NCBI GenBank assembly: GCA_900120395.1
Contig: LT635553.1
Span: forward strand, 150,721-214,720
Direction of reading: 5' to 3'
Length of the DNA: 64,000 nucleotides
Source of the DNA: Porphyromonadaceae bacterium FC4
GTDB lineage: Bacteria > Bacteroidota > Bacteroidia > Bacteroidales > Porphyromonadaceae
In this document: positions 31,194-63,398 of the stretch, piece by piece
Layout: every line of letters starts with the position of its first letter
How positions within the stretch are numbered: the first letter of the stretch is position 1
Position numbers and translations under genes: made by a program
Notes under the pieces: model-generated
The model's input: only the letters and a program-made list of their open reading frames with translations
Database searches by the model: none
What the model was told of the DNA's origin: nothing

Positions 31194-31283
31194 AAAAGTT
31201 TCCTACTGGAAACCGTTTGCTACTATCCGTCAAATCGTTCTCTTTCCTACTGGAAACTTTTCGCTACTATCCGTCCAATTTTT
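31194..31283 (+). repeat. interspersed ~90-bp repeat, copy A
   Basis: Two tandem ~44-bp units, each with the hairpin TTTCC-TACT-GGAAA followed by GCTACTATCCGT and an A/T-rich tail. The IS ends exactly at its first bases. It lies upstream of the M16 peptidase promoter (box at 31357). Confidence 0.9.
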
Positions 31284-31356
31284 CCCCCCCGATCCTCCGT
31301 TTTCTCCGTGTCATGTACTCCTTTGGAACTTTGCCCCCGGGGTAAGCTGAATAATT

Positions 31357-31364
31357 AGTACTTT
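31357..31364 (+). promoter_or_regulatory. -7 promoter box TACTTTTG
   Basis: TACTTTTG fits TAnnTTTG and puts the transcript start near 31371. This excludes the in-frame GTG at 31364 as the start of the peptidase gene. Confidence 0.55.
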
Positions 31365-31423
31365 TGTGTGCTCTGCAGGAGGTGGTTTGCTCCTGCAGGA
31401 GCTGTTTTTATAGAATTGACGAC

Positions 31424-32665
31424 TTGAATACCGATCCCTACTCTACTCATACCCTCTCCAATGGTCTCACAGTGGCGCTGCTCCCGTCGAAGAGCCGTGC
31501 CGTGTACTGTGGCTTTGCAGTCCGGTGCGGGAGTCGCAACGACCCCGAGACGCTGCCGGGGCTGGCGCACTTTGTGGAGCACATGCTCTTCAAGGGGACC
31601 ACGAAGCGGCGTGCTCACCACATCATCAACCGTATGGAGGCAGTCGGGGGTGACCTCAATGCTTATACGACGAAGGATGAGACGTTTTTTTACACCTCGG
31701 CGCCCCGTCGGGAGCTGGTGCGAAGTATGGAACTGCTCAACGACCTGGTGCGCCATGCTACGTTCCCGATGAAGGAGCTGGTGAAGGAGCGTGTGGTGGT
31801 GGCGGATGAGATCAATATGTACAAGGATACGCCATCGGACCGGATCTTTGACGACTGGGAGGCGCTCTTCTTCCGCGGGACAGCGCTGGAGCATCCCATC
31901 CTCGGCTCCACAAAGGCACTGGCGCGGATGACTCCGGACGATCTGCTGGCATACACGCAGCGGTACTTTACCCCGGACAGGCTGGTCTTCTTCTGCATGG
32001 GACAGGTGAGCGAGGAGCGTTTTGTGGAGCTGGCGGAGCGGTATCTGGGTGAGCCCTTTGAGACGCTCTCCTCTCCTGAGGTGGAGCCTCTGGACCCGGT
32101 GCGTCCGGCTCCCTTTAGGGAAAAAAAGAGGACGACCACCCACCAAGCGCTGACCCTCATCGGCGGGCTGGCGTATGACCTGAACCATCCTCGCCTTACT
32201 GAGGCCAATATCCTCTGCAGCCTGCTTGCCGGCAACGGGATGAATACCCGGCTCAATATCCTGCTCCGGGAGCATCGGGGCTGGGTCTACGATGTGGATG
32301 CCTTTCACGTCGCACTCTCGGACATCGGGTGGTGGCAGATCTACTTTGGCAGCGACCCGGTGCATGCGGCGCCGGCGCTGGAGGTGACGCTGCAGGAGCT
32401 GGATCGACTCTGTCGTGAGCCCCTGACCACCAGGCAGCTGCATGCCTGGATCAAGCAGATCAAGGGGCAGGTGACGATGAATACGGAGCAGAGCGAGGCG
32501 ATATTTTTGAGCTTCGGGCGCCAACTCCTCCACAAGGGATACTACGAGACTACCCCGGAGCTGTACGAAGACCTCAACCGCGTCACCTCCGAGAGCCTGA
32601 ATGCCACGGCGCGAGAGCTCTTTGACCCCCAAAACATCCACACACTCGTCTACAGCGGTCGCTGA
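31424..32665 (+). CDS. M16 family zinc peptidase (PqqL/processing-protease type)
   Basis: About 413 residues, a usual size for single-unit M16 proteins. It has the inverted zinc motif HxxEH in GLAHFVEHMLFKGTTKR with the downstream Glu in the helix KERVVVADEINMYKDTP. The N-terminus THTLSNGLTVALLPSKS is typical. No ATG is available in frame near it. TTG at 31424 (LNTDPYSTHTL) is chosen because the -7 box at 31357 rules out the earlier GTG; the exact start is uncertain. No signal peptide is seen. Confidence 0.85.
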   Translation: MNTDPYSTHTLSNGLTVALLPSKSRAVYCGFAVRCGSRNDPETLPGLAHFVEHMLFKGTTKRRAHHIINRMEAVGGDLNAYTTKDETFFYTSAPRRELVRSMELLNDLVRHATFPMKELVKERVVVADEINMYKDTPSDRIFDDWEALFFRGTALEHPILGSTKALARMTPDDLLAYTQRYFTPDRLVFFCMGQVSEERFVELAERYLGEPFETLSSPEVEPLDPVRPAPFREKKRTTTHQALTLIGGLAYDLNHPRLTEANILCSLLAGNGMNTRLNILLREHRGWVYDVDAFHVALSDIGWWQIYFGSDPVHAAPALEVTLQELDRLCREPLTTRQLHAWIKQIKGQVTMNTEQSEAIFLSFGRQLLHKGYYETTPELYEDLNRVTSESLNATARELFDPQNIHTLVYSGR

Positions 32666-32691
32666 CCGGCGGCCTCCTTTTGGGCAAAAAA

Positions 32692-32730
32692 GAAGTGGCA
32701 CGTGCGGACCATGTCCGTTTGCGCCACTTC
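32692..32730 (+). terminator. hairpin after M16 peptidase gene
   Basis: GAAGTGGC pairs with GCCACTTC across a 23-nt loop containing a GGAC-CAT-GTCC dyad. There is no strong T-run. Confidence 0.45.
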
Positions 32731-33403
32731 AGTAATCCATGCACGGCAGCCATCGATCTCACGACTGACAGCGGAGCCTGGTATGTTATATCTTGCCACA
32801 AGAAGGGCAGGTCTGCTCTTGTGCTTGTTGGAAAGGGAATTTGTTGTTCAAGAGCATAGCCGCCTTTTCTCTGTTTTTTTCTCTGTGGCATCTTCTCTCC
32901 TAACCCTCGAGAGAGATATCTGTATAGATGCACGCAACGGCAGGTTTTCTGACTTCCTCCCTTCGGCAGCACCTTCCCATAGTGTAAAGAGATGATACCA
33001 CAGTGGTGTTTGCTAAAAGGGTCGAGCTCTGCCTATATGCGCACTGATCACAGTCTGGTGTGGTCAGCTGTCGAGCTCGGTGTCTGAATCCCTTTTTCCA
33101 CCGAAGGTTGATGAGGTACACAGCAGCGGGGCTGTACGAGAATCTCACTCGTTTCCCTCTTCTTCCGCCCGATCACGACGGAAGCACCGTTGGTGCAAAT
33201 ATAGATAATTTAATCCAGAACGCTAAACAGTATTCGCAGGGTAATTGTGTCGGACTCCCCACCCCTTGTCGATGAACCCTCCTGGATCGACTCCGGGAAA
33301 AAACAGGCAATCCTCCATCTGATTGCCCGGACGTCATGCACTGATTTTGTAAGGGGTTAACGATCCTTAACTAGATAGGGGTGCTTGCGTAGCGACATTG
33401 TAT
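32731..33403. other. long intergenic region
   Basis: About 670 bp without a credible gene. The short frames on both strands have no recognisable content. A small dyad GGCAATC/GATTGCC lies at 33306-33327. Composition is core-like in the first half and AT-richer near the GH92 promoter. An unannotated RNA cannot be excluded. Confidence 0.4.
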
Positions 33404-33411
33404 TATATTTG
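33404..33411 (+). promoter_or_regulatory. -7 promoter box TATATTTG for GH92 gene
   Basis: TATATTTG with TTG at 33384-33386 as a possible -33 element; 54 bp upstream of the ATG at 33465. Confidence 0.55.
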
Positions 33412-33464
33412 TACTACGTGACCGAAGCCTACAACCATTGACAGACCCTACTATCGGACCTAAT

Positions 33465-35825
33465 ATGACTCCTAAAATCCTGAAGCCTGTTCTTCTCCTT
33501 TTTATGTTTTTTGTATGCCCTGGCTCCCTTTTTGCACAAGAGCCTCGTGGCACTCTCGAGCCTGTGGACTACGTCAATCCTTTCATCGGTACTGCGGGGA
33601 TGGGGCATGTCTTTCCCGGCGCATGCACGCCCTTTGGTGCGGTGCAGCTTAGCCCCGATACCGATACCATACCGCACAATATCGGTGGCATTTACCAACA
33701 GGAGGTGTATGCCTACTGCGCCGGCTACCAGTATACCGACCCCACGATAGTGGGCTTTAGCCATACGCACTTCAGTGGCACGGGGCACTCGGACCTCGGT
33801 GACCTCCTGGTGATGCCTACGGTAGGACCGCTAAAGCTGAGTCCCGGTAGGGCTGAGCACCATACTGAGGGCTACCGTTCGGCATACCGTCATGAGCAGG
33901 AGGCGGCTGAGCCCGGCTACTACCGCGTCCACCTGGATGACTATGCAATAGATGCGGAGCTAACGGCCTCTCCCAGAGTAGGCGTACACCGCTACACCTA
34001 CCCCGCGGACGCCGATACAGCACGGGTAGTCCTGGATCTCAACCACGGTATCTACAACTACGATGGCAAGACGCTCTGGGCGAGCTTGCGTGTGGAGAGC
34101 CCGACGCTCATCACCGGCTACCGAATCACCAACGGCTGGGCGCGTACCAACTATGTCTACTTCGCCATCTCCCTCTCCAAGCCGATCATCAACTACGGCT
34201 ATACCGACCATGAGCCGGTCAGGTACAATGGCTTTTGGCGGAAGTTTGATCTCACGTCCAACTTCCCTGAGATGGCAGGGCGGAAGGTCGTCGCTTACTT
34301 TGAGTTTGATAACACCAGCTCGCAGGAGCTGGAGGTGAAAGTGGCACTCTCCGCTACCGGTACCGATGGGGCACTGAAGAATCTTCGTGCAGAGACGGAG
34401 GGGAAGAGCTTTGACACCCTGCGGCAGGAGGCGCGCGGTCGCTGGGCCAAAGCGCTCGATGTCATAAGGGTGGAGGGGACGCCGGAGCAAAAAGCGATGT
34501 ACTACACCTCACTCTACCACACCATGATCAACCCCTCACTCTACATGGATGTGGATGGAGCCTACAGGGGATTGGATGGCAATATCCACCGGGCGGAGGA
34601 CTTCACGAACTACACCATCTTTTCTCTCTGGGACACCTACCGTGCGGAGCACCCGCTGCTGCTCCTGCTATGCCCCGATCAGGCTGCGAGCATGGGTACC
34701 TCCATGGTCCGGCATCAACAGCAGAGTGTCCACGGACTACTGCCGATCTGGAGTCACAACGCTAACGAGAACTGGTGCATGAGCGGCTACCACTCTGTGT
34801 CGGTGCTCTCCGACCTGATCGACAAGAATGCCGGCATCGATGCAGAGGCTGCCCTTGCTGCTATGGTGGAGACTGCCGGTGTCCCGTACCTTGATGGACT
34901 AGGCGACTATATCGAACTGGGCTATGTCCCATGGGAGGCAAGCGGCACCTCAGCCTCCAACACCCTGGAGTACTGCTACGATGACTGGACAATCTACCGG
35001 GCGGCAAAGACCCTTGGGAGGCAGGATGTAGCGGATGCCTTTAGCAAGCGTGCGCTCAACTACCGCAACCTTTTCGACCCTGAGACCCGCTACATCCGTC
35101 CCAAGCTAAAGGATGGCTCCTTTCGGTCGTCTTTTGACCGACTGCAGACGCATGGAGAGGGATTTATAGAGGGCAACTCCCAAAACTTTACCTTTCATGT
35201 GCCGCACGATGTGGCAGGGCTGATGGAGCTTATCGGAGGGGATCGCCAATTCATCCGTCGGCTGGACGAGCTCTTTGAGTCCGACCTTCCGAAGGTGTAC
35301 TACGAGAAAAACGAAGACATCACTGAGGAGGGGATCGTGGGTGCCTACGTGCACGGCAATGAACCTAGTCACCACATCCCCTACCTCTATGCCTGGACCT
35401 CACAGCCCTGGAAGACACAAGAGCGGGTGCGAGATATCATGAACAAAATGTATCACGCTGAGATCCGAGGCTTGCGGGGCAATGACGACTGTGGGCAGAT
35501 GTCTGCTTGGTACATCTTTACTGCGATGGGCTTTTATCCGGTCTGCCCGGGCACCGATCAGTACATACTTGGTGCTCCCTACCTGCCATACCAAAAGGTC
35601 AGCCTACCTAACGGCAAGATCCTCGAGATCAAAGCTCCAAAGGTGAGCGACCGATACCGATACATCCGTAGAGTCACGCTGAATGGCAAACCGCTGACCC
35701 GGACGTTCATCACCTATGACCAGATCATGGCGGGAGGAGTGCTGGAATTTGAAATGAGCTACAAGCCCAATAAGAGATGGGGGACCGCCCCAAGCGATAA
35801 GCCCTACTCACTCTCGACAGAGTGA
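33465..35825 (+). CDS. GH92 family alpha-mannosidase (secreted)
   Basis: 786 residues from the ATG at 33465, with a signal peptide (LKPVLLLFMFFVCPGSLFAQ). GH92 hallmarks: VDYVNPFIGTAGMGHVFPGA near the N-terminus, TPFGAVQLSPDT, and the catalytic-domain segments FSLWDTYRAEHPLL, ENWCMSGYHSV and GNDDCGQMSAWYIFTAMGFY. GH92 enzymes are calcium-dependent exo-mannosidases that trim host N-glycans, often alpha-1,2-linked mannose. It is complete and standard in length. It stands as a single gene followed by a lipoprotein protease, suggesting host glycoprotein use. Confidence 0.93.
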   Translation: MTPKILKPVLLLFMFFVCPGSLFAQEPRGTLEPVDYVNPFIGTAGMGHVFPGACTPFGAVQLSPDTDTIPHNIGGIYQQEVYAYCAGYQYTDPTIVGFSHTHFSGTGHSDLGDLLVMPTVGPLKLSPGRAEHHTEGYRSAYRHEQEAAEPGYYRVHLDDYAIDAELTASPRVGVHRYTYPADADTARVVLDLNHGIYNYDGKTLWASLRVESPTLITGYRITNGWARTNYVYFAISLSKPIINYGYTDHEPVRYNGFWRKFDLTSNFPEMAGRKVVAYFEFDNTSSQELEVKVALSATGTDGALKNLRAETEGKSFDTLRQEARGRWAKALDVIRVEGTPEQKAMYYTSLYHTMINPSLYMDVDGAYRGLDGNIHRAEDFTNYTIFSLWDTYRAEHPLLLLLCPDQAASMGTSMVRHQQQSVHGLLPIWSHNANENWCMSGYHSVSVLSDLIDKNAGIDAEAALAAMVETAGVPYLDGLGDYIELGYVPWEASGTSASNTLEYCYDDWTIYRAAKTLGRQDVADAFSKRALNYRNLFDPETRYIRPKLKDGSFRSSFDRLQTHGEGFIEGNSQNFTFHVPHDVAGLMELIGGDRQFIRRLDELFESDLPKVYYEKNEDITEEGIVGAYVHGNEPSHHIPYLYAWTSQPWKTQERVRDIMNKMYHAEIRGLRGNDDCGQMSAWYIFTAMGFYPVCPGTDQYILGAPYLPYQKVSLPNGKILEIKAPKVSDRYRYIRRVTLNGKPLTRTFITYDQIMAGGVLEFEMSYKPNKRWGTAPSDKPYSLSTE

Positions 35826-35907
35826 CCAACCTAGAAAGCCCATCGGACAGAACCCCTTGAACCAATCCCTTGTATCCAATCCATCCTAACATTATACCTC
35901 AAGTACT

Positions 35908-36696
35908 ATGAACTACTTTCGTACGCTAGTCAGCGTCCTATCCCTTCCACTATTGATGTTCACGAGTTGCTCGTCCACCCATGAGTCGGAGGAGCAGGCT
36001 GCTGCAGCGGACTGGTCCGGCTACGATGTTGGCACCATCGTCTTTGTGGACGACGCTCCGTCTTCAAGAGGCTCTGAGATCTACCATGAGCTCATCCCCG
36101 ATCCGGAGAGCTACATCCGCGAGCAAGCCCGAGTGGTCCTGAGTACCCTCTACTTTAGTCCCAACGACAGTATCACCCCGGTGGAAGAGATTCTATACAC
36201 TCTAGAGGACCGTGACGGTATCTCTGCCAAGGGCGGTGGAGATGGCCAGGTGCAGGTCTACTACAGCACCCGGTACATCGAGAAGGTGTTTGCCGAAGAC
36301 CCGAGCAGTGAGCGTATGCTCTTTGAGACCCGCGGAGTATTGCTTCACGAGCTGACTCATGCGTATCAACTGGAGCCGCAGGGCATCGGTACTTACGGGA
36401 CCAATAAGACCTTTTGGGCGCTCATCGAGGGAGTGGCTGATGCGGTAAGGGTCGTCAATGGAGGCTTCAAAGGTCCGCAGGACCGACCGGTCGGTGGGCA
36501 CTACATGGATGGCTACCGCCATGCCGGATACTTCTTTGCATGGCTGCAGGAAAACAAGGACCCGGACTTCATCAAGAAGCTCAATCTAAGCACGCTGGAG
36601 CTCAACCCATGGAGTTTTGAAGAAGCATTCAAGCTGATCCTGGGCAATGAAGCCGATCCCGAAGCACTCTGGACAGAGTACCAAGCGAGTCTATAG
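35908..36696 (+). CDS. BSP-family metalloprotease lipoprotein
   Basis: 262 residues with a lipoprotein signal (SLPLLMFTSCSS). The zinc-binding HExxH is in GVLLHELTHAYQLEPQG, followed by the family segment FWALIEGVADAVR and GGHYMDGYRHAGYFFAWL, as in basic secretory protein peptidases (PF04450). It is expected at the cell surface or outer membrane. It lies 82 bp after the mannosidase and has its own strong terminator. Substrate unknown. Confidence 0.8.
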   Translation: MNYFRTLVSVLSLPLLMFTSCSSTHESEEQAAAADWSGYDVGTIVFVDDAPSSRGSEIYHELIPDPESYIREQARVVLSTLYFSPNDSITPVEEILYTLEDRDGISAKGGGDGQVQVYYSTRYIEKVFAEDPSSERMLFETRGVLLHELTHAYQLEPQGIGTYGTNKTFWALIEGVADAVRVVNGGFKGPQDRPVGGHYMDGYRHAGYFFAWLQENKDPDFIKKLNLSTLELNPWSFEEAFKLILGNEADPEALWTEYQASL

Positions 36697-36714
36697 ACGT
36701 TATTTACCAAAGAT

Positions 36715-36760
36715 CCCCGTGCTCTGAGGTGTTAGTCCTCAGAGCACGGGGATTTTCTTT
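36715..36760 (+). terminator. strong intrinsic terminator
   Basis: CCCCGTGCTCTGAGG (36715-36729) pairs with CCTCAGAGCACGGGG (36737-36751), then ATTTTCTTT. Confidence 0.9.
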
Positions 36761-36762
36761 GG

Positions 36763-36794
36763 GGACGTGTCGGAGCGTCAGCCCCGACACGTCC
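36763..36794 (-). terminator. hairpin after tpiA
   Basis: GGACGTGTCGG pairs with CCGACACGTCC (36784-36794), 12 bp after the tpiA stop on the minus strand. It has no T-run of its own but lies back to back with the stronger terminator at 36715-36760. Confidence 0.6.
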
Positions 36795-36805
36795 TCACGC
36801 TCTAT

Positions 36806-37564
36806 TTAGAGAAATGCCTCAACGATCGGGAGGAACTTCTCAGCGGCGAGTGATGCGCCACCGATCAGACCACCGTCGACATCCGGCTTGGAGAAGAGCT
36901 CGTGTGCGTTTCCGGCATTGCAGCTACCGCCGTACAGGATGGTTGTGTCCTCTGCCACCTGCTCGCCGTACTTATCGGCAACCACCTTGCGGATGTGTGC
37001 ATGTATCTCCTGCGCTTGGTCGCTGGTTGCGGTCTTGCCGGTGCCGATAGCCCATACCGGCTCGTAGGCGAGGATGATCTTGCGGAAGTCCTCCTCCGAC
37101 AGGTCAAAGAGTGCTTCCTTCACCTGAGTCTCTACGACGTTGAAGTGCTGCTCCGCCTCACGCTCCTCCAGCTTTTCGCCGATGCAAAAGATCACGCCCA
37201 GCCCGTTGTCGAGTGCGAGACGTACCTTCTTTGCCAGGATCTCGGAGGTCTCTCCGAAGTAAGCGCGACGCTCACTGTGTCCGAGGATGACCAGCTTAGC
37301 ACCGGTGCTTGCCACCATCTCTGCGGAGACTTCACCTGTGTAGGCTCCCTTGGCTTCGCTTGCACAGTCTTCGGCTGCCACCTTGATGTCCGATCCCTCG
37401 ACAGCATCTACGACCGCTGCCAGGTGCGTAAAGGGCACACCCAGGATCACATCGCACTTCTGTGGCTGGATCGCCAGGCCTTTCTTGACTTCGGTTGCCA
37501 GGTGGATACCTTCCTTGAGGTTGGTATTCATTTTCCAGTTACCTGCTACTACGTTCTTTCTCAT
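36806..37564 (-). CDS. tpiA: triose-phosphate isomerase
   Basis: 252 residues, standard size. GNWKMNTNL near the N-terminus supplies the active-site Asn and Lys. The catalytic His is in [12 protein letters not shown], the catalytic Glu in [11 protein letters not shown], and the phosphate-binding GGLIGGASL is near the C-terminus. It interconverts dihydroxyacetone phosphate and glyceraldehyde 3-phosphate in glycolysis. It follows the DoxX gene by 16 bp and is probably cotranscribed with it and the DUF1599 gene. Confidence 0.98.
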
Positions 37565-37580
37565 GTCTTGTCTTATTTAT

Positions 37581-40305: not shown

Positions 40306-40398
40306 AAAAAGTTTCCTCCTGGAAACCGTTCGCTTCTATCCGTGAAACATTTCTCTTTCCTACAGGAAACATTTCGCTTCTATCCGTCAATTTTTTTT
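40306..40398 (+). repeat. interspersed ~90-bp repeat, copy B
   Basis: Same two-unit structure as copy A with a few changes (CTCCT and TACAG in the loop regions, GCTTCTATCCGT). It lies between the pepE start and the radC end in a 353-bp gap that is otherwise empty. Confidence 0.9.
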
Positions 40399-47637: not shown

Positions 47638-47729
47638 GAAAAGTTTCCTACTGGAAACCGTTTGCTTCTATCCGTGAAACGTTTCTCTTTCCTACTGGAA
47701 ACATTTCTCTACTATCCGTCAAATTTTTT
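47638..47729 (+). repeat. interspersed ~90-bp repeat, copy C
   Basis: Two-unit repeat, same orientation as the downstream smpB, ending 64 bp before the smpB -7 box. Confidence 0.9.
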
Positions 47730-47792: not shown

Positions 47793-47800
47793 TACCTTTG
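47793..47800 (+). promoter_or_regulatory. -7 promoter box TACCTTTG for smpB
   Basis: TACCTTTG with GGTTTTTTG upstream; 14 bp before the ATG, giving a near leaderless message. Confidence 0.55.
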
Positions 47801-47813: not shown

Positions 47814-48290
47814 ATGGCAAAGAATAAGGATAACAACAGCAAGCGCGTGCTGATCAAGAACAAGCGCGCCACCTACGACTACGAGATCCTGGAGACCTTC
47901 ACCGCCGGGCTGGTGCTGTACGGCACCGAGATCAAGTCCATCCGGCAGGGCAAGGCATCTCTGGTGGATACCTTTTGCCTGGTGAGCAAGGGCGAGGTGT
48001 GGGTGAAAAACATGCATATAGCGGAGTACTTCTTTGGGAGCTACAACAACCACGTGCCCCGGCGCGACCGCAAGCTCCTGCTGCACAAGCGCGAGATCCG
48101 CAAGCTCCTGGAGGCCTCCAAGGACGTGGGGCTGACCATCATCCCGCTGAAGCTCTTCGTCAACGACCGCGGGCTGGCAAAGCTTGAGGTCGGGATAGCA
48201 AAGGGTAAGAAAGAATACGACAAGCGCAACGCCATCCGGGAGCGTGAAATCAAGCGCGAACTCTCCGATGCAAAGAAAATTCGCTGGTGA
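47814..48290 (+). CDS. smpB: SsrA-binding protein
   Basis: 158 residues from the ATG at 47814. The upstream open frame runs through repeat copy C and is not coding. Signatures: [34 protein letters not shown], and a basic C-terminal tail ([20 protein letters not shown]). It binds tmRNA to rescue stalled ribosomes. The tmRNA gene is not in the window. Confidence 0.97.
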
Positions 48291-50070: not shown

Positions 50071-50973
50071 TTACTTTATTTCTTGGACGTAGTACTTCGT
50101 CAGGTCAGTAGGGTCTATCGCGCCCTCCACGACAGTGACGATCGAAAACTCTGTCAGGGGCGTGTCTCCAAGGGTTGCATCGATGGTGATGGAGCCTACC
50201 TTCTTGCCCGGGAGCTCTATCTCTACTCCAGTCTGAGGGTTCTTCACCTTCTTGCCTTTTGTGTAGATGTCAAAACGGTCGCCTACCATAAGTCCTTGTG
50301 AGGCTCCGCCTGCTATGATCGTGCCGTCCTCGCCTGCGGAAATGAGGTAGGTGCGCCACGGTTTGTCAGAGCACTTGTTGATGATGTTTTCCACCAATTG
50401 ATCAATCGCGGCAGAGATAGCCTTGTCGCCAAGCGAGGCGTCGTAGCCGCTCTTGCCCCCGAGTCCCAGGGTGCTCTTGCTTACGGTAGTGGCGTGCCCC
50501 TTTGCCTCTTCGGAGTAGGTGGCAATCCCGGTGGCTACATCTACCAGCCTGAGGCTGACGGCAGCCTCGACCTGCTGGGTCTTCTCGGCTGTGAACAGCC
50601 CGTCCTGACCGGTAGTCTTCCGTCCAAATTCTGTGACGGAGCCGAGGATGACGTAGTCTGCCTTTATCTTGTTGGCACTCGTGCCCTCTTCGACCTCTTG
50701 GACAAGAGCCTCTGCATCCGACCGCTCGAGGAGGATAAACTTGCCCGAGGCAGCCAGCTTGGCAGAGAGTATGTCCAGAGCTTGCTTGGCGATGGGGTCA
50801 TTTTCTCTGTCGTAAAAAATGCCTTTGCCGTACTGTGTCTCGTTGGAAAAGCGACCAATGGCTACCTTCCATTTTAGAGAGCGACCGGTCTCGGCTTGCC
50901 CAAATGCAGGCTGCAGGGCAGAAAATAAAACAGCTATAAGCGCTAAGCCTAAGTTTATTTGTGATCGTTTCAT
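50071..50973 (-). CDS. CsgG-family outer-membrane secretion-type protein
   Basis: 300 residues from the ATG at 50973. A longer frame to 51333 runs through repeat copy D and is rejected because a -7 box is at 51012-51019. It has a signal peptide (LALIAVLFSALQPAFGQ), CsgG-like KWKVAIGRFSNETQYGKG, ILSAKLAASGKFILLERSD, ADYVILGSVTEFG and RLVDVATGIATYSEEA, then a C-terminal beta domain (QGLMVGDRFDIYTKGKKVKN). No lipobox Cys is seen. Such proteins form or assist outer-membrane export pores. Confidence 0.88.
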   Translation of the reverse strand: MKRSQINLGLALIAVLFSALQPAFGQAETGRSLKWKVAIGRFSNETQYGKGIFYDRENDPIAKQALDILSAKLAASGKFILLERSDAEALVQEVEEGTSANKIKADYVILGSVTEFGRKTTGQDGLFTAEKTQQVEAAVSLRLVDVATGIATYSEEAKGHATTVSKSTLGLGGKSGYDASLGDKAISAAIDQLVENIINKCSDKPWRTYLISAGEDGTIIAGGASQGLMVGDRFDIYTKGKKVKNPQTGVEIELPGKKVGSITIDATLGDTPLTEFSIVTVVEGAIDPTDLTKYYVQEIK

Positions 50974-51011: not shown

Positions 51012-51019
51012 CAAATGTA
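51012..51019 (-). promoter_or_regulatory. -7 promoter box TACATTTG for CsgG operon
   Basis: Minus-strand TACATTTG, 39 bp upstream of the start at 50973. Confidence 0.55.
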
Positions 51020-51075
51020 CGTAAAAAGATAATACGATATATAAGATATGTGGGGATTTTTTGTGATCTGCTCAC

Positions 51076-51167
51076 GAAATTTGACGGATAGTAGCGGAAT
51101 GTTTCCAGTAGGAAAGAAAACGATTTGACGGATAGGAGCGAACTGTTTCCAGTAGGAAACTTTTTGC
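51076..51167 (-). repeat. interspersed ~90-bp repeat, copy D
   Basis: Reverse orientation, matching the direction of the CsgG operon downstream of it. Contains TTTCCAGTAGGAAA twice and GACGGATAG twice on the plus strand. Confidence 0.9.
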
Positions 51168-57300: not shown

Positions 57301-57760
57301 AGGTGATGTAGGGGTTGTCGGTATCGACCCAGTAGCCCATTTGCTCGGTCAGCTCGGTCCACTCGCTCGTGTACTTCATCACCTCCTTCTTGCAGGCGGT
57401 GTTGTACTCCTCCACGGAGATCTTTGTGCCGATGTCTGCCTTGGTGATGCCGAGCTTCTTCTCCACGCCCAGCTCTACGGGCAGTCCGTGTGTATCCCAT
57501 CCTGCCTTGCGGTCAACGAGGTACCCCTGCATGGTCTTGTATCTGCAGAAAATGTCCTTGATCGTACGGGCGATGACGTGGTGGATACCGGGCAGACCGT
57601 TTGCTGAGGGAGGACCCTCGTAAAATACAAACCGCTCTGCACCCTCGCGGAGAGCCAGGGATGCCCTGAAAAGCTCCTCACTCTTCCACGTTTCCAGCAT
57701 AGATTCGTTGACCTCGTGTAGGTCTAGCTTATCGTACGTGTTGAACTGTTTTTCTGTCAT
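54359..57760 (-). CDS. ileS: isoleucyl-tRNA synthetase
   Basis: 1133 residues from the ATG at 57760 (MTEKQFNTYDKLDLHEVNES). The HIGH-type motif is in PPSANGLPGIHHV, KMSKS in DGNKMSKRLGNTVDP, and the class-Ia editing domain contains TTPWTLPSNTALTVG. The C-terminal region is the long type found in Bacteroidetes. It charges tRNA-Ile. Promoter box at 57791-57798. Confidence 0.98.
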   Translation of the reverse strand: MTEKQFNTYDKLDLHEVNESMLETWKSEELFRASLALREGAERFVFYEGPPSANGLPGIHHVIARTIKDIFCRYKTMQGYLVDRKAGWDTHGLPVELGVEKKLGITKADIGTKISVEEYNTACKKEVMKYTSEWTELTEQMGYWVDTDNPYITYDNKYIETLWYLLKQLYQKGLLYKGYTIQPYSPAAGTGLSSHELNIPGTYRDVKDTTCTAMFVVKDPKPEMEGFGTPYFLAWTTTPWTLPSNTALTVGPKTTYVAVRTYNPYTLEPITVVLGEPLLHAYFDKEGEQLPMEQPEKGTKVLPYRIVGRWTGAELDGMAYEQLFPWVNPGEGAFRIITGDFVTTEDGTGIVHTAPTFGADDYRVAQASGVPPLQLLDKEDNLRPMVDLEGKFYRLEDLNPDFVAEKMDAKAYGSYAGRFVKNQYDDTLAEDAESLDISLCMQLKERGQVFRIEKMTHSYPHCWRTDKPILYYPLDSWFIRSTAKRERMMELNDTIHWKPTSTGTGRFGKWLENLQDWNLSRSRYWGTPLPIWRTEDGKEEKCIGSLEELIQEIEQSVQAGNMKSNPWQDFVPGDYSKENYDRVDLHRPYVDEIVLTAKDGRPMYRETDLIDVWFDSGAMPYAQLHYPFENKALIDEHLYYPADFIAEGVDQTRGWFFTLHALGTMLFDSVAFKNVISNGLVLDKDGNKMSKRLGNTVDPFKTIRDSGSDPLRWYMITNASPWDNIKFDLDGVEEVSRKFFGTLYNTYSFFALYANLDGFVPGEMQVEHSARPELDRWILSALGSLIDEVRADLDDYEPTKAGRAINDFVNDQLSNWYVRLGRKRFWGSGMSEDKRSAYETLYTCLEVISRLIAPFAPFYADRLYRDLTGKDRSVHLTDYPTADPQWKDLPLENAMDYAQRISSMVLALRRKMDTKVRQPLQKILVLTADETAKKAIAHVQDLILNEVNVKELVFATSDAGLVVKRVKPNFRKLGPIFGKEMKAVAAYLEELDQTTIATLESAGAIPYGDHSISVENVEIISEDVPGWLVQNDGNITVALDETITEELRLEGYARELVNRIQNLRKSGGFEVTDKIQVQLQAHPTIHEVLTHHADYIQAQVQAPQLTEVPDLQSGECLDLDEDLNIFVEITKIN

Positions 57761-57790
57761 AAGTCTCTGAATGGTCTCAAAATATATGTG

Positions 57791-57798
57791 CAAAGGTA
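57791..57798 (-). promoter_or_regulatory. -7 promoter box TACCTTTG for ileS operon
   Basis: Minus-strand TACCTTTG, 31 bp upstream of the ileS start. Confidence 0.55.
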
Positions 57799-57929
57799 CC
57801 ACTTTCTTGCCTAACTTGGTAGGTCATTTCCGCTAGCAACCAAGGGGATGGCTCAGGGGCAAGGGCAGGTGCTCCCGTGCCACTTACGGGAAGCGATGGT
57901 GAGGTTTGTGAGGGTGAAGAGGAGGGGGC

Positions 57930-58511
57930 TTACGCTTCGGGCTGCTTACCCAGCTTGTGCCAGCGGTACCAGCCCAAGACGGCGACCACACTGTAGATGA
58001 CAAAAAAGTAGCCGGTAACCGTGAAGCCCTGCAGGAAGTAGAGCGTGCAGTAGATGACGTTGCTCAAGATCCAGCAGTACCAGGTCTCGATGTACTTCTT
58101 GGCCAGCAGCCACATGCCGACCAGGCTCACGGAGGTGGCTATGCCGTCCCATATGGGGTAGGGGCTGCCCATGTAGTGCTTCAGCAGCGGAGTGATGAGG
58201 ACGACCCCTGCCACAGCGATCAGCAGAGTGATGAGTGCCGTCCGAACGGGCATATAGCGGATGCCGGCGGTGTCGTCGCCGGCTTCGCCACGGCTCCTGT
58301 GCCAGGCGATCCAGCCAAGGATGCAGGCGATGATGTAGTAGACGTTGACGACGATGTTGCCGTACACCCGGCTCTCCCACGAGATGTAGATGTAGAAGAG
58401 GGGGAGCACGATGCCGACCGGCCAGAGCCAGCGACTGGCGCGCATCTCCAGCCACACATAGATGATCCCTATGGTGGCGGCGACAATCTCTATGATCTGC
58501 ATCTGATCCAT
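57930..58511 (-). CDS. pnuC: nicotinamide riboside transporter PnuC
   Basis: 193 residues from the ATG at 58511. Seven or so membrane segments fill the protein. Family signatures: AATIGIIYVWLEMRASRWLWP, WESRVYGNIVVNVYYIIACI, WLLAKKYIETWYCWILSNVI. It imports nicotinamide riboside or a related vitamin. It stands alone, with no thiamine-type riboswitch seen upstream. Confidence 0.93.
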   Translation of the reverse strand: MDQMQIIEIVAATIGIIYVWLEMRASRWLWPVGIVLPLFYIYISWESRVYGNIVVNVYYIIACILGWIAWHRSRGEAGDDTAGIRYMPVRTALITLLIAVAGVVLITPLLKHYMGSPYPIWDGIATSVSLVGMWLLAKKYIETWYCWILSNVIYCTLYFLQGFTVTGYFFVIYSVVAVLGWYRWHKLGKQPEA

Positions 58512-58520
58512 AACCAGAGA

Positions 58521-58528
58521 CAAAGGTA
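58521..58528 (-). promoter_or_regulatory. -7 promoter box TACCTTTG for pnuC
   Basis: Minus-strand TACCTTTG, 10 bp upstream of the pnuC ATG, giving a nearly leaderless message. Confidence 0.5.
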
Positions 58529-58576
58529 ATAAAAACAAACAGATATGGGGCGTGAAAAAAGCGACGCCCGGCGGCG

Positions 58577-58668
58577 AAAAGTTTCTTACTGGAAAGAGAT
58601 CGCTACTATCCGTGAAACATTTCTCTTTTCTACTGGAAATATTTCGCTACTATCCGTCCAATTTTTTG
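58577..58668 (+). repeat. interspersed ~90-bp repeat, copy E
   Basis: Two-unit repeat with some drift (TTTCTTACTGGAAA, TTTTCTACTGGAAA). It lies between the divergent pnuC and HAD genes. Confidence 0.88.
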
Positions 58669-58819
58669 TCCGAATCTGAGGGACAAAAAAATTGGGGGCT
58701 TCCGGTGGGGAAACTTCGGGTATGGAGCCTGACTAATCCTGGGGTCTCGGAGGAAAATGAGTATATTGTGTCACCATTTCTTTTATTGAACAATACCAAC
58801 CGGTAGATACCCATACGAT

Positions 58820-59449
58820 ATGATCAAGAATATACTATTCGACCTGGGCGGAGTGCTGATCACGCTGAACCGCGACCGTGCCGTGCAGCGATTTGAGGCG
58901 ATCGGTGTGCATGATGCGGATCGGATGCTCGACCCGTACCTGCAGAGCGGACTTTTCCTGCATCTGGAGTCGGGCGAAGTGACTGAGGATGAGTTTGTAG
59001 CCGCACTCCGTGAGCGCTACGGCGACCAAGTTACCCACGAGGCTGTGGAGCATGCCCTGCTGGGCTTTTTTGAGCGGGTGGATGAGGAAAAGCTGGACTA
59101 TATCTACGAAGTGCTTCGTCCGAAGTACCGTCTCTTTTGCCTCTCGAATACCAATCCCATCGTTTCGCGCACCACGCTTTCTCCCGACTTTCTCCGGAGC
59201 GGGCGGCGGCTGGAGGAGCACTTTGAGAAGCTCTATTTCTCATACCGAATGAAGGTCTGCAAGCCGGATCCGACAATCTTTGAGACCATCATCAGCGACA
59301 GCGGGATCCGCCCCGAGGAGACCCTCTTTTTGGACGACGGGGCTGCCAATACGGCTGCTGCACGGGAGCTGGGCTTCATTACTTTTCGTCCCGAGAATGG
59401 GGCTGACTGGCGTGATGCCATCGACCGACTGGTGGGGGAGCAGGCGTGA
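58820..59449 (+). CDS. HAD-superfamily hydrolase
   Basis: 209 residues. HAD motifs in order: NILFDLGGVLITL (motif I), FCLSNTNPIVS (II), KVCKPDPTIFE (III), TLFLDDGAANTAAA (IV). Motif I has DLG instead of DxD. Other HAD phosphatases with this change exist, so activity is not excluded. Its stop overlaps the GTG start of the next gene. Confidence 0.9.
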   Translation: MIKNILFDLGGVLITLNRDRAVQRFEAIGVHDADRMLDPYLQSGLFLHLESGEVTEDEFVAALRERYGDQVTHEAVEHALLGFFERVDEEKLDYIYEVLRPKYRLFCLSNTNPIVSRTTLSPDFLRSGRRLEEHFEKLYFSYRMKVCKPDPTIFETIISDSGIRPEETLFLDDGAANTAAARELGFITFRPENGADWRDAIDRLVGEQA

Positions 59450-60057
59450 ACGAGTACCGGAGTATAACGTCTGCCGTGTCGGCACAGTATACGGAGAAGC
59501 GTAGTCGCTTCATAGCGCATGCGCTGCCGGTGCGGACCGTAGAGGAGGCGATGGAGCGGATCGAGTCTTTTCGAAAGGAGTACTACGATGCGCGCCATGT
59601 CTGCTGGGCATACCGTATCGGGCATGATGAGGAGGCGGATGAGCGAAGCAACGACGATGGTGAGCCCTCGGGTACGGCGGGAAAGCCGATCTTGGGGCAG
59701 CTCTTGAGCTACGATCTCAGGGATGTGCTGGTCGTGGTGGTGCGCTACTTTGGTGGGGTCAAGCTGGGTACCGGAGGGCTGATGGTGGCGTACCGGACCG
59801 CAGCAGCTGAGGCGCTGGATGCGGCAGAGCAGATCAGGTATGTCCTCTACACGTACTACATCCTCCGCTTCCCGTACGATCTGATCAACCCCGTGATGAT
59901 GCTCCTGCGCGAGCACGAGGTGGAGACGCTCGATAGTGATGCTGATCTGGAGGGGTATATCTGGAAGGTGCGTGTGCCAAACGGTAGTTGCCGACCCTTT
60001 GAGGCAGCTACTGAGCCGCTTTATCAGCTGGATCTCGAGAAGACGCACGAGGAGTGA
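59446..60057 (+). CDS. IMPACT/YigZ family protein
   Basis: 203 residues starting at a GTG that overlaps the HAD stop (GTGA). The UPF0029 signature DDGEPSGTAGKPILGQL, ARHVCWAYRIGHDEEADERS, and VVVVRYFGGVKLGTGGL are clear. The C-terminal domain is the ferredoxin-like DUF1949 type. Its function in bacteria is unsettled. Confidence 0.9.
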   Translation: MNEYRSITSAVSAQYTEKRSRFIAHALPVRTVEEAMERIESFRKEYYDARHVCWAYRIGHDEEADERSNDDGEPSGTAGKPILGQLLSYDLRDVLVVVVRYFGGVKLGTGGLMVAYRTAAAEALDAAEQIRYVLYTYYILRFPYDLINPVMMLLREHEVETLDSDADLEGYIWKVRVPNGSCRPFEAATEPLYQLDLEKTHEE

Positions 60058-60135
60058 GGGGGAGTCCTTTCTCTCTTTCTCCTCGTGTTGTCGTTGGAGG
60101 AGGTTTTGCTTTTAGAGCTCTTTGGGGATAAAACA

Positions 60136-60174
60136 AGCGGGTGTGTCAAAACTTTGAGTCTTGACACACCCGCT
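60136..60174. terminator. bidirectional hairpin terminator
   Basis: AGCGGGTGTGTCAA pairs with TTGACACACCCGCT over an 11-nt loop between the convergent IMPACT and M16 peptidase genes. Confidence 0.8.
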
Positions 60175-60219
60175 CTCTATCTGAGGTACTCCGGGTGGTG
60201 GAGTATCTATGAAGCTGAC

Positions 60220-63063
60220 TTACTTGGCATCGGGCTTACCGGATGCGATCATCTCGAAGTAGCGGTCGTTGGTCACGATCTGCTCCACATACTTGCGGAT
60301 GTCCTCGGGAGTGATGCTGCGCAGGGTCTCCAGGTACGCATCGTGAGACTCTTCGCCCCAGATCACCTTGTTGATGAGCAGTCCGCCCCAGTAGCTGTTT
60401 GACTCCTGAGCCTCGGAGAAGCTCTTTTCGCGGTTGAGGACCGCCTTGGTGAAGTAGCTCTCGTTGATGCCATCCTTGGCAATCTCCTTGAGCTGCTTCT
60501 TGACGATCTCATTGAGTCGTACCGCTTGCTCAGGGTTGGTCTTGAACATCACGCCCAGTGATCTCTGACCCTCGGGGTTTCGGTCGATGTTGCCCATGAC
60601 GCTCACTCCGTAGGTGCCGCCCTCGTCCTCACGGATGGAGACGTGGAAGGTCTGGTTGAGCACGTCGGTGAGGAGCCCCATGAGGAGCTTCTCGCGGAGG
60701 TTGTACGCACCGTCGCCGACGTACATGTCAATAACCGACGAAGTGGGGGTGTCCATCTTGAAGTCGAAGTGGGTGGTCCTGCCCTCGGAGAGGTACTTTA
60801 GGACCTTGCTGCGATCCTCGCGCTCTACACGCTTGGTAGAGGGTAAAGCACCGAGGTACTGAGCCACGAGGGGCTTCATCTCCTCCGGGTCGAAGTCTCC
60901 GCTGATGAAGAAGACAAAGTCATCCGCATTGGCAAAGCGGTCGCGGTGCATCTCCAGTATCCTGTCGTAGTTCACCGACTCTACATCTTCGGTGGTAAGT
61001 GGTCGTGCCATGATGTTGTCCCCATACAGGAGATAGGGCACGCTGTCTTGCATGACAGTGTTCAAGGGGTTGGCTTTTTGCGCTTGGAGGCTTGCCAACA
61101 TCCGCTCCTGAGTTTTCTTGAAGAATGCGGTGTCGGGACGAACATCGGTCATGTAGAGGTAGACGAGCTGGAACATGTCCTCAATGTCGCTGGAGTTGGA
61201 GCTGCCACTCACCTGCTCCATCAGCCTGCCTACCGACGTGCTCGCAGATACGCTCTTGCCGGTAAGGACTCGGCTGAGCTGGATGGGGTCGTACTCGCCG
61301 ACACCACCTATGGTCGCAAAGGTATTGAGCGTGCGGATCTCGTTGCTCTCCTTTGTTTCGTCGTAGAGCGAAGTGCCACCAAAGCTTACTCCGGAGAGAG
61401 AGACCTGGTTCTTCTCATGAGTCAGGGGCTGTAGGTAGACCCGGACACCATTGCTGAGGTGAAGTAGCGTGGAGCCAAATGGCTGGTTTTCTTCCACGCT
61501 GACGATCGATCCGCCCTTGGGGAGCTCCGTCATGAGGTCTTTGGCTACTGCCTGCTCCTCGTAGGGCTCTACCTCTTGCTTCATCGCTTCATTGTACTGC
61601 CGGAGCAGCTCTTCTTCGGTCGGATACTCGAGGTCGTCAGCTGAGGGCGCCATGAGGTAAAGGGTCAGGTTGTTGCCGTTCTTCAAGACCAACTGCTGGA
61701 AGATCTCGTTGATCGCCTCTACCGGTACTTGCTGAGAGATGGCGTTGATCCACTGGTGCTCCACCTCGATGCCGGGGATGTAGCCACCCTCGGTGAAGAA
61801 GGTCGAGTACTCCTCTGCATACTGACCGTTTTCTCGGTTGTCTTTGCTCTTGAGGAGGTTGTCGTAGGCGGTGAGGTAATTGGTACGGGCACGCTCGTAC
61901 TCACTCTCTGTGAAGCCATACTGTGCCGCTTGCTTGAGATCAGCAACGGCTGCCTCCATGGCAGGCTTGTACTTGCCCTTGTCGGCAGTTACCTGCAACG
62001 TGAGGGCGTCGCGGGTGAGGGCTATGAGGTAGGGACCATAGCCGACTGCTGCGCTGAGGTAGGGGCAGTCTGCCTTCACGGAGTGCTCTGCAAAGCGCTG
62101 GTTCATCATGGATGAGAGCATGCTCATGGCATAGCTCTCCATCATGTGAAGCGGGGTGTTGCGTTCGTTGATGGAGGTGGCCTTTGTGCTGTACATGACA
62201 TTCACGCTGGTGCCCACAATCTCGGGGTCGGTGACCACGATACTGATGGGTGCCTCCAGGTCGGGTACTTCGATGTACTCGCGCTCGGGGCGTGAAGGAT
62301 CCAGCTCGATGTGCGAAAAGGTCTCCTTGATCTTCTCCTCGACTGCATCTACGTCCACATCTCCCACGACGATGATCCCCTGTAGATCCGGACGGTACCA
62401 GCGGTGGTAGTAGTCGCGCAAGGTCTGGTGGTCGAAGTTGAGCACTACGTCCATGCTACCGATGGGCATGCGTTTGCCGTAGCGATTGCCTTCGGGGAAT
62501 GCTCGCTCAAAGATCTTATTATACGCACGCATCGATCCGTTGTCCCGTGAGCGCCACTCCTCGTGGATCACTCCGCGCTCCCTGTCGATCTCGTCTCCCT
62601 CCAGTGAGATAGCTGTGCTCCAGTCGTGGAGGATCAGCAGGCAGGAGTCCACCATGGATGAGCGGGTAGACGGAGCATTCATGATCATGTAGACCGTCTG
62701 GTCAAAGGCGGTGTAGGCATTGAGGTTTTCTCCAAACTTGATGCCGTTTTCCTCCAAGTAATTGATGAGGTTTTTGCCGGGGAAGTTCTTAGTCCCATTG
62801 AATGCCATGTGCTCCAAGAAGTGTGCCAGTCCGGACTGACTATCCTCCTCCTGCATGGATCCGACGCGCTGAGCGATGTAGAAAGTCGCACGCTGCGCAG
62901 GCTTTTCGTTGTGACGAATGATGTACGTCAGCCCGTTGTCCAGCTTGCCCATCCGGACACTAGGGTCGATGGGGAAGGGTTCCATCAAAGGATTCTGAGC
63001 TGTGGAGCTTAGTGCAAAAAAAGCACAAAACACCACAGTTAGAGTGTGTAATAACTTATGCAT
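60220..63063 (-). CDS. large M16 family zinc peptidase (secreted)
   Basis: 947 residues with a signal peptide ending FFALSSTAQN. Two M16 halves: the first holds HxxEH in LAHFLEHMAFNGTKNFPG with the downstream Glu in RERGVIHEEWRSR. The second half (residues ~480-940) is inactive, as usual. Members of this class are often exported processing or scavenging proteases in Bacteroidetes. The gene stands alone. Complete. Confidence 0.93.
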   Translation of the reverse strand: MHKLLHTLTVVFCAFFALSSTAQNPLMEPFPIDPSVRMGKLDNGLTYIIRHNEKPAQRATFYIAQRVGSMQEEDSQSGLAHFLEHMAFNGTKNFPGKNLINYLEENGIKFGENLNAYTAFDQTVYMIMNAPSTRSSMVDSCLLILHDWSTAISLEGDEIDRERGVIHEEWRSRDNGSMRAYNKIFERAFPEGNRYGKRMPIGSMDVVLNFDHQTLRDYYHRWYRPDLQGIIVVGDVDVDAVEEKIKETFSHIELDPSRPEREYIEVPDLEAPISIVVTDPEIVGTSVNVMYSTKATSINERNTPLHMMESYAMSMLSSMMNQRFAEHSVKADCPYLSAAVGYGPYLIALTRDALTLQVTADKGKYKPAMEAAVADLKQAAQYGFTESEYERARTNYLTAYDNLLKSKDNRENGQYAEEYSTFFTEGGYIPGIEVEHQWINAISQQVPVEAINEIFQQLVLKNGNNLTLYLMAPSADDLEYPTEEELLRQYNEAMKQEVEPYEEQAVAKDLMTELPKGGSIVSVEENQPFGSTLLHLSNGVRVYLQPLTHEKNQVSLSGVSFGGTSLYDETKESNEIRTLNTFATIGGVGEYDPIQLSRVLTGKSVSASTSVGRLMEQVSGSSNSSDIEDMFQLVYLYMTDVRPDTAFFKKTQERMLASLQAQKANPLNTVMQDSVPYLLYGDNIMARPLTTEDVESVNYDRILEMHRDRFANADDFVFFISGDFDPEEMKPLVAQYLGALPSTKRVEREDRSKVLKYLSEGRTTHFDFKMDTPTSSVIDMYVGDGAYNLREKLLMGLLTDVLNQTFHVSIREDEGGTYGVSVMGNIDRNPEGQRSLGVMFKTNPEQAVRLNEIVKKQLKEIAKDGINESYFTKAVLNREKSFSEAQESNSYWGGLLINKVIWGEESHDAYLETLRSITPEDIRKYVEQIVTNDRYFEMIASGKPDAK

Positions 63064-63307
63064 AAGCGATATTGATAGTGTATTTTGGTATTTATTTTAT
63101 CCTAATGATAGTAAGTGCAAGTTACACTTTTTCTTTGAATTAGCCCCAAAAGCTGACCCTGTAACCAGGGCTCACGCATTTGAAGTTTAGAAGTAGTCGG
63201 GGGTAATGATGTCGGTGGAGTCTTTGGTGGCATTGATTTTTGCAGTGCCGCCAGGGCTCTTTTCTTCTTTTTCTTCAACCTCTCAAGAGAGAAGTTGACG
63301 TGTACTG

Positions 63308-63398
63308 AAAAAGTTTCCTACTGGAAACAGATTGCTACTATCCGTCAAATCATTTTCTTTCCTACTGGAAACATTTCCCTTCTATCCGTCAAATTTTC
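63308..63398 (+). repeat. interspersed ~90-bp repeat, copy F
   Basis: Two-unit repeat inside the inverted-repeat segment, 245 bp upstream of the M16 peptidase start. Confidence 0.9.

What the first reader, a model, noticed from the sequence alone, without database searches (positions are those of the whole stretch)
31194..63398. Six copies of a ~90-bp two-unit repeat upstream of core genes, absent from mobile DNA
Copies at 31194, 40306, 47638, 51076 (reverse), 58577 and 63308 share two ~44-bp units, each TTTCC-TACT-GGAAA then GCTACTATCCGT and an A/T-rich end. This is one per ~5.5 kb in the core part and none in the ICE blocks. All lie in the 5' regions of genes, and in copies A and C the repeat ends about 65-75 bp before a -7 box. 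Such density suggests a genome-wide family with a role in transcription, chromosome packing or RNA processing, or a very successful non-autonomous element.
Basis: seen in the sequence. Interest (0 to 1): 0.75.

Follow-up and report, generated by a model that had tools for sequence, protein, structure and literature searches.

The report
Evenly spaced four-site DNA repeat arrays
This bacterium's chromosome carries about 250 copies of a short four-part repeat, between genes and spaced far more evenly than chance, and related species carry repeats of the same design but different sequence, which may point to an unrecognised system that marks or organises bacterial chromosomes.

Summary
The six copies are real members of a family of about 250: 235 found by four junction patterns plus 14 from a sample. 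In a 40% sample, 96 of 102 copies are two 44-bp units, i.e. four 22-bp sites. They follow intergenic DNA without 5' preference and are evenly spaced: 7 of 247 gaps are under 3 kb, where uniform placement gives 74; intergenic-limited nulls are rejected too. Within the array, common alleles are nearly unlinked beyond 15 bp and no sampled pair of cores reaches 97% identity, which does not fit simple recent copy-paste. The sequence is absent from 37 relatives at up to 3 mismatches, but all 10 relatives sampled have their own intergenic family of about 22-bp units; in the one mapped, spacing is as even. Best reading: sites of an unidentified chromosome-organising protein that co-evolves with its sites. 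Main rival: a self-excluding mobile element. Against: no protein found, positions not demonstrably shared between species, rare variants not site-concentrated. Eight library searches found no description.

The parts
31193..31284 (+). Array copy A, 92-bp core (two 44-bp units, four 22-bp sites)
   Evidence: (0 and 0 mismatches in the two units), core limits
40306..40397 (+). Array copy B, 92-bp core
   Evidence: 2 and 2 mismatches
47638..47729 (+). Array copy C, 92-bp core
   Evidence: 1 and 1 mismatches
51074..51165 (-). Array copy D, 92-bp core
   Evidence: 0 and 1 mismatches
58576..58667 (+). Array copy E, 92-bp core
   Evidence: 1 and 1 mismatches
63308..63399 (+). Array copy F, 92-bp core; one of 10 sampled copies with the left end TTGACGTGTACTGAAAAA or a near variant; about 8 of them also share a degenerate right-hand block
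   Evidence: 0 and 2 mismatches
31359..31366 (+). TAnnTTTG box 84 bp past the last conserved base of copy A, before the gene at 31424
   Evidence: consensus match only
47793..47800 (+). TAnnTTTG box 73 bp past copy C, before the gene at 47814
   Evidence: consensus match only
51012..51019 (-). TAnnTTTG box 64 bp past copy D, before the gene ending at 50973 on the minus strand
   Evidence: consensus match only

Best explanation
The repeat is a chromosomal site made of four 22-bp subsites (palindrome GTTTCC-N4-GGAAAC alternating with the box CTATCCGTSAAA), each about two turns of DNA, so a protein could bind all four on one face. About 250 such sites are spread evenly (median gap 7.3 kb), independent of gene direction and replication arm. 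I propose that they are docking sites of a chromosome-organising, nucleoid-bridging or domain-forming protein, that too-close sites are selected against or excluded, and that protein and sites change together, so each Porphyromonas-type species has the same design with different letters. Shown: anatomy, number, intergenic position, even spacing in two species with unrelated arrays, near-absence of linkage between alleles, counterpart families in 10 of 10 relatives sampled. Inferred: protein binding, the protein, a structural function, co-evolution.
For: Even spacing: 7 of 247 gaps under 3 kb versus 73.7 expected uniformly, CV of gaps under 18 kb 0.42 versus 0.77. In the sample 4 close pairs under 3 kb versus 16-24 in six intergenic-limited nulls; per-20-kb variance/mean 0.45 versus 0.77-0.84. 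GC-rich palindromes of the same genome, 25 clusters, behave randomly under the same test. A relative with unrelated arrays shows the same: 1 of 78 gaps under 6 kb versus 21.5, CV 0.47 versus 0.98, and the two hazard curves nearly coincide when scaled by their medians. Alleles more than 15 bp apart have r2 0.010-0.024 (1/n is 0.010), and 287 of 378 site pairs show all four combinations. No pair of 4560 reaches 97% core identity. Relatives: 3-5 units of 21-23 bp, 63 of 63 counted arrays intergenic. No orientation bias (63/64 and 36/36 on the two arms of C4; 125 of 247 neighbours co-oriented) and even density from ori to ter.
Against: No binding protein was identified. Rare private variants (83) are spread over core sites about as a Poisson process (variance/mean 1.09), so site-by-site purifying selection is not shown; short-tract homogenisation would also explain the near-equilibrium. 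Genes next to an array in a relative are not significantly more often next to one here (12 of 33 versus 61 of 233, P = 0.15). Beyond about 6 kb the hazard of the next copy is flat, so nothing enforces a maximum spacing, and a simulation of insertion with soft exclusion comes close to the data. The -7-box peak could mean a transcription role. Even spacing in relatives was tested in one species only.
Confidence: 0.42

Rival explanations
1. Self-excluding mobile elements: the arrays are non-autonomous elements, perhaps transposase-binding ends, and a copy inhibits insertion nearby, as in the target immunity of Mu, Tn7 and Tn3 (recalled). Each species has its own active family; purging leaves copies between genes.
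For: Short-range exclusion with a flat hazard beyond is what immunity predicts, and a soft-exclusion simulation at 6 kb gives CV 0.45 against 0.42 observed. Positions are not demonstrably conserved between species. Ten sampled copies carry a longer, mobile-looking left end. Arrays of 22-bp sites recall Mu and Tn7 ends (recalled, no call).
Against: No copies at or above 97% core identity among 4560 pairs and alleles nearly unlinked beyond 15 bp, against a copy-paste genealogy. Flanking arms show no left-right complementarity beyond chance (209 of 1000 shuffles). Three of the closest inverted pairs enclose host genes or GC-rich palindromes, no transposase seen. Copies with the mobile-looking end lie closer to neighbours than the rest (median 4.2 versus 5.9 kb, P = 0.035, n = 10). 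The exclusion range scales with mean spacing across two species.
Confidence: 0.25
2. Upstream regulatory elements: arrays bind a global regulator that acts on nearby promoters.
For: In 54 copies with a co-directional downstream gene, 27 TAnnTTTG boxes lie 50-128 bp past the array, 14 of them at 80-100 bp.
Against: Only 26 of those 54 copies have such a box. On the 5' side boxes are broad (46 at 40-220 bp in 62 copies). Twelve of 97 copies lie between gene ends, as expected from intergenic DNA. Even spacing is not predicted.
Confidence: 0.14
3. REP/BIME-type extragenic palindromes moved by a Y1 (RAYT-type) transposase.
For: Palindromic, intergenic, high copy, different in each species. The only Y1_Tnp match in the genome has an array about 0.76 kb downstream.
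Against: That gene is surrounded by its own GC-rich palindromes. The tetranucleotide at the hairpin foot is not conserved: GCTWC has A in 31 of 96 (unit 1) and 55 of 96 (unit 2); CTAC/GTAG is present in the loop instead. Even spacing and near-equilibrium of alleles are not REP features that I know of.
Confidence: 0.08
4. Self-marks for DNA uptake or recombination (USS- or Chi-like).
For: Lineage-specific, even, absent from the mobile blocks of this window.
Against: The box alone is not in excess outside arrays: 648 hits minus 179 reversed-control hits is 469, about the 473 unit hits. Ninety base pairs once per 8 kb is unlike 9-12-mers about once per kb (recalled).
Confidence: 0.06

Closest known systems
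REP/BIME palindromes and RAYTs
   Same: intergenic, palindromic, multi-unit, high copy, species-specific
   Different: no tag at the hairpin foot, 44-bp direct (not alternating) units, even spacing, nearly unlinked alleles; the genome's single Y1 gene has other palindromes around it
BrickBuilt and other MITEs of Porphyromonas gingivalis (PMC4596501)
   Same: tandem 22-23-nt units between genes in the same family of bacteria
   Different: BrickBuilt: 19 copies, up to 18 repeats of AGAYCATARTATCCTCTCRTRTG, leader and tail with IS5-like ends (abstract, passages and part of section 7 seen); here about 250 copies of fixed 2 x 44 bp without such ends. BrickBuilt-like arrays were seen in G017 beside its other array family
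BOX elements of pneumococcus (recalled)
   Same: modular left arm, repeated middle unit, right arm
   Different: unit number almost fixed at two (96 of 102); no relatedness tested
Noc, MatP and parS-type chromosome sites (recalled)
   Same: palindromic sites scattered over a chromosome and bound by an architectural protein
   Different: those are single short sites with defined ori or ter zones; here four-site arrays, uniform from ori to ter
Mu and Tn7 transposon ends (recalled)
   Same: arrays of 22-bp sites and local exclusion
   Different: units here contain palindromes; no cognate transposase found or searched for
USS/DUS uptake sequences (recalled)
   Same: lineage-specific and evenly spread
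   Different: short words, far denser; here no excess of the box outside arrays

Membership tests
REP/BIME (RAYT-mobilised) | conserved GTAG/GGAG-type tag at the foot of the hairpin | tested here: not met
   the candidate GCTWC is A in 31 of 96 and 55 of 96; CTAC/GTAG occurs inside the loop, not at the foot
REP/BIME (RAYT-mobilised) | flanks the cognate Y1 transposase gene on both sides | tested here: inconclusive
   one Y1 gene; one array about 0.76 kb away on one side; GC-rich palindromes on both sides
MITE | terminal inverted repeats | tested here: not met
   arm complementarity 1.84 versus 1.74 in shuffled partners, 209 of 1000 shuffles reach it; only A-run/T-run ends are shared. One copy (L056) has TIR-like ends on both sides
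MITE | target-site duplication and empty sites | not tested
   no second strain or close relative was available; the relative with the best IleRS match has 72% protein identity
MITE | copy-paste genealogy with recent near-identical copies | tested here: not met
   0 of 4560 pairs at or above 0.97 core identity; 287 of 378 site pairs four-gamete
BrickBuilt | 23-nt unit AGAYCATARTATCCTCTCRTRTG in long tandem runs | not tested
   sequence differs by eye; the BrickBuilt unit was not searched for in this genome
CRISPR array | identical repeats separated by unique spacers | tested here: not met
   linkers between units are conserved across 96 copies
USS/DUS | short word over-represented in coding and non-coding DNA | tested here: not met
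   the 12-mer with up to 2 mismatches is 469 over control, about equal to the 473 unit hits; sampled arrays are intergenic
Nucleoid-protein binding sites | bound by a specific chromosomal protein | not testable with these tools
   needs pull-down or ChIP
Mu/Tn7-like ends | cognate DDE transposase and AAA+ partner between two ends | not tested

The most novel reading that the evidence does not exclude
A family-wide, previously undescribed chromosome-spacing system: every Porphyromonas-type species maintains its own evenly spaced set of roughly four-site, 22-bp-period arrays bound by a fast-evolving protein, a bacterial analogue of rapidly evolving centromere sequences, with one array allele graded from origin to terminus (2% to 39%) as a positional code.
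Probability: 0.27. Interest if true: 0.95.

Novelty: categorically new. Interest (0 to 1): 0.86.

Why it matters
Bacterial interspersed repeats are usually explained as mobile junk or local hairpins. A family that is spaced evenly over the chromosome, whose alleles are nearly unlinked, and that recurs in each related species with the same design but different letters, needs another explanation. It would make the origin of regular spacing along a bacterial chromosome, and the rapid co-evolution of DNA sites with their binder, directly testable in culturable anaerobes. 'Categorically new' refers to this combination of properties; the function itself is unproven, and if the self-exclusion rival is right the fair label would be a new variant of a known kind.

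Tried and rejected
Apparent one-strand bias on contig C4: an artefact of a listing that stops at 100 places; counts are balanced. Left-right arm pairing across the core: not above shuffles. Orientation along the replication arms and clustering of orientation: none. Location-dependent overall similarity of copies: Mantel r -0.02, P 0.096, though one linked group of alleles is graded. Naming the organism through genome contigs: 13 loci, none from a near relative. IMG/VR: 0 exact matches. Orthologous array positions: not significant, and the IleRS neighbourhood keeps too little gene order to decide. RAYT: its own palindromes surround the gene. Reading the right-hand block of some copies as a transposase end: the frames are degenerate and no gene was identified. 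Degenerate copies being closer to neighbours: no correlation (Spearman 0.10, P 0.32).

Rows dropped: 4 of 106 unit groups with more than 6 mismatches; 4 edge copies and one overlapping a predicted gene end from the context count; 6 of 102 copies not of standard two-unit form or too near a stretch end from column, LD and identity work (96 used); 3 of 10 G002 pattern clusters judged false by eye; G012 places above C1:1,466,500, where the list lacks reverse-strand places; one of the 11 GTGTACT copies (window 31199), because its left end is not of that type. The 14 sample-only copies were left out of the allele-gradient counts.
Full report
WHAT WAS CHECKED. The six copies are present as described. 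The window lies at C4:150721-214720 of a 2,121,386-bp genome in 4 contigs. Relative G017 carries BrickBuilt-type runs that match the published P. gingivalis consensus, and its length of 2,354,886 bp is, from memory, that of strain ATCC 33277; G012 has the length that I recall for P. asaccharolytica DSM 20707. These names are inferences.

SAMPLE AND MAP. I read the window and 39 systematic stretches of 20 kb: 844 kb, 40% of the genome. It holds 102 copies: 96 with two units, 5 with one, 1 with three. Units with up to 6 mismatches number 208, against 0 in reversed sequence. Four junction patterns without mismatches found 42, 94, 62 and 37 copies genome-wide, with 0 in each reversed control. Their recall on the sample is 88 of 102; with 14 sample-only copies the map has 249. 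The true number is probably somewhat higher, since outside the sample about one copy in seven may be missing.

ANATOMY. The conserved core is 92 bp: AAAAA, then GTTTCCTACTGGAAAC, linker, CTWCTATCCGTSAAAY, T-rich linker, the same two blocks again, and a T run. It reads as four 22-bp sites, two of them palindromic. Tandem Repeats Finder reports both 22- and 44-bp periods in this genome. CTATCCGT and the following AAA of unit 1 are invariant in 96 of 96 copies. In unit 1 the loop TACT is replaced by its reverse complement AGTA in about a sixth of copies; in unit 2 hardly ever. Weakly conserved arms of about 20 bp with A-runs lie on either side; they do not pair with each other beyond chance. As DNA, 40 copies fold with mean z -3.4 against -0.7 for 26 other intergenic pieces.

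POSITION. Of 98 copies with both neighbours known, 97 are between predicted genes; with a 20-bp tolerance 102 of 102. Genes were called with a simple codon model of my own, not a standard annotator. Relative to flanking genes the copies are ++ 24, -- 31, -+ 30 and +- 12, which follows the intergenic bases available. On the 3' side of copies that face a gene, TAnnTTTG boxes (the Bacteroidetes -7 element, recalled) peak 80-100 bp past the array; on the 5' side they are spread over 40-220 bp.

EVEN SPACING. Gaps have mean 8.4 kb and median 7.3 kb. Seven of 247 are below 3 kb, against 73.7 expected and a minimum of 53 in 2000 uniform simulations; the CV of gaps below 18 kb is 0.42 against 0.77, minimum 0.67. 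Restricting random placement to intergenic sites does not explain it: under 3 kb there are 4 pairs in the sample against 16-24 in six nulls, under 5 kb 17 against 28-37, with P at most 0.0005, and the per-20-kb variance/mean is 0.45 against 0.77-0.84, P about 0.006. GC-rich palindrome clusters of the same genome show no such effect (25 clusters, variance/mean 0.99). A caution: divergent gaps, which cannot be adjacent by construction, also have a low ratio of 0.53. Repulsion holds for both relative orientations but is stronger for direct neighbours (8 of 125 under 4 kb against 18 of 122, P 0.04), so loss by recombination between direct repeats may add to it. Eight gaps exceed 18 kb; the one in this window is mobile DNA, while another, read in L064, holds ordinary genes including an aminotransferase and a radical-SAM protein, so not every large gap is mobile DNA.

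HOW COPIES DIFFER. Mean core identity is 0.855, maximum 0.967, and 0 of 4560 pairs reach 0.97. Among 28 common variable sites r2 falls from 0.28 at 1-3 bp to 0.013 at 15-24 bp (1/n is 0.010), with 0.024 at 50-91 bp, and 287 of 378 site pairs show all four combinations. Copies from a few recent sources would keep linked haplotypes. Either each copy is an old site toggling among tolerated letters, or very short tracts are exchanged among copies. Against the first, rare private variants are spread evenly over the core (variance/mean 1.09), although the first box and the second hairpin have few (6 each). Distance along the chromosome hardly matters (Mantel r -0.02).

ORIGIN-TERMINUS GRADIENT. The unit-1 allele CCGTGAAA makes up 1 of 45, 2 of 40, 7 of 43, 10 of 51 and 22 of 56 copies in successive distance bins from dnaA, with counts by arm of 0/1, 0/2, 3/4, 5/5 and 8/14 (dnaA at C4:1132459; rank test P 8e-7). 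This was noticed after the fact. The origin is taken to be at dnaA and the orientation of contig C3 is unknown. The matching unit-2 site shows no such clustering (position 76, P 0.21).

RELATIVES. The pattern with up to 3 mismatches is absent from 37 of 37 relatives in two genus groups. I sampled 10 of those 37. Self-comparison of the stretches, without using our motif, showed in each a different dispersed family of units of about 21-23 bp (own genome as positive control). Examples: GTCGTTARACTYGATGACGAAA (G002), AAATCAAGCCTTGATTT (G003), TTTATTCCTAGGAATAAA (G004), GAGATGCAACTAAGCAATTGCC (G005), TTCTTCCTATAGGAAACAG (G007, which resembles ours), ACTAATACCGGTATTAGT (G001, G006), AAGTTGGGAACTTAG (G011), TCCACGTGGA with ACTTCGGAGGAAT (G012) and GGCGCGAGAATTTTTT (G017, the weakest case, fold z -1.3). 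Arrays counted number 63, all intergenic, at one per 13-42 kb; for G001, G006 and G011 only two arrays each were seen in 26-39 kb. Loci of other genera have fewer such tandem repeats (31 per Mb against 55-136), which is only a rough control. In G012 126 places match; the list is complete below 1,466,500, where 79 arrays have mean gap 18.6 kb, 1 of 78 gaps under 6 kb against 21.5 expected, and CV 0.47 against 0.98. Genes flanking arrays are not significantly shared with ours: 12 of 33 against 61 of 233, P 0.15.

HOW IT MOST LIKELY WORKS. The even spacing, indifference to gene direction, fixed four-site design and per-species sequence suggest docking sites of a chromosome-organising protein that changes together with its sites (0.42). 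That a protein binds is inferred. The strongest rival is a mobile element whose copies exclude one another (0.25): a flat hazard beyond the excluded zone and a soft-exclusion simulation fit it. Against it stand the near-equilibrium of alleles and the closer neighbours of copies that carry a mobile-looking end (median 4.2 against 5.9 kb, P 0.035, n = 10). That the excluded zone is about 3 kb here and about 7 kb in G012, in proportion to the mean gap, is also awkward for a fixed molecular range.

LITERATURE. Eight searches of the held library listed no paper whose title or listed abstract describes such arrays. I saw the abstract, passages and part 1 of section 7 of PMC4596501 (BrickBuilt; it mentions 41-, 23- and 22-nt tandem repeats in strain W83 without locations) and passages of PMC5771137 (its authors say that they did not annotate repeats of 3-31 bp). 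All other papers were seen as search listings only. Subscription papers are largely outside this library.

Noticed in passing
own genome C4/C3: A linked group of alleles in unit 1 (CCGTGAAAC) rises from 2% near dnaA to 39% near the presumed terminus, on both arms; on C4 those copies are 23 plus to 6 minus.
   Followed up: partly
L033 (C4:786159-789500): The only Y1_Tnp match in the genome (frame L033:1489-1917, 142 aa) is surrounded by GC-rich palindromes such as GACCCCGACGGATGTCGGGGTC, a likely RAYT/REP system of its own; 25 clusters of GC-rich palindromes of this kind were counted in the sample.
   Followed up: partly
window 1-16400 and about 19500-31000: Two blocks of conjugative mobile DNA (DUF4099/DUF3945/Toprim_Crpt, N6_Mtase with SNF2 domain; TraM, DUF4138, integrase beside tRNA-Ser at 19380) around a core island at 16453-19467 with a lipid A acyltransferase gene. 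Outer limits are approximate.
   Followed up: partly
window 32922-33205 (-): Cobalamin riboswitch aptamer, 61.7 bits.
   Followed up: no
own genome, 10 of 102 sampled copies, e.g. window 63308: Left end TTGACGTGTACTGAAAAA or a near variant; about 8 of the 10 share a degenerate right-hand block of roughly 100 bp; L056:5857 has such ends on both sides.
   Followed up: partly
own genome, unit 1 of arrays: The hairpin loop TACT is inverted to AGTA in about a sixth of unit-1 hairpins but almost never in unit 2.
   Followed up: no
G004 stretches L132 and L141: A second 22-23-bp tandem family (GAGTTTCTCCCCAGAGGGACTCC) beside the A/T-rich one.
   Followed up: no
G005 stretches, e.g. L151-L157: Many clusters of GC-rich palindromes and GTCGGACAAG-type short tandem repeats near the arrays.
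   Followed up: no
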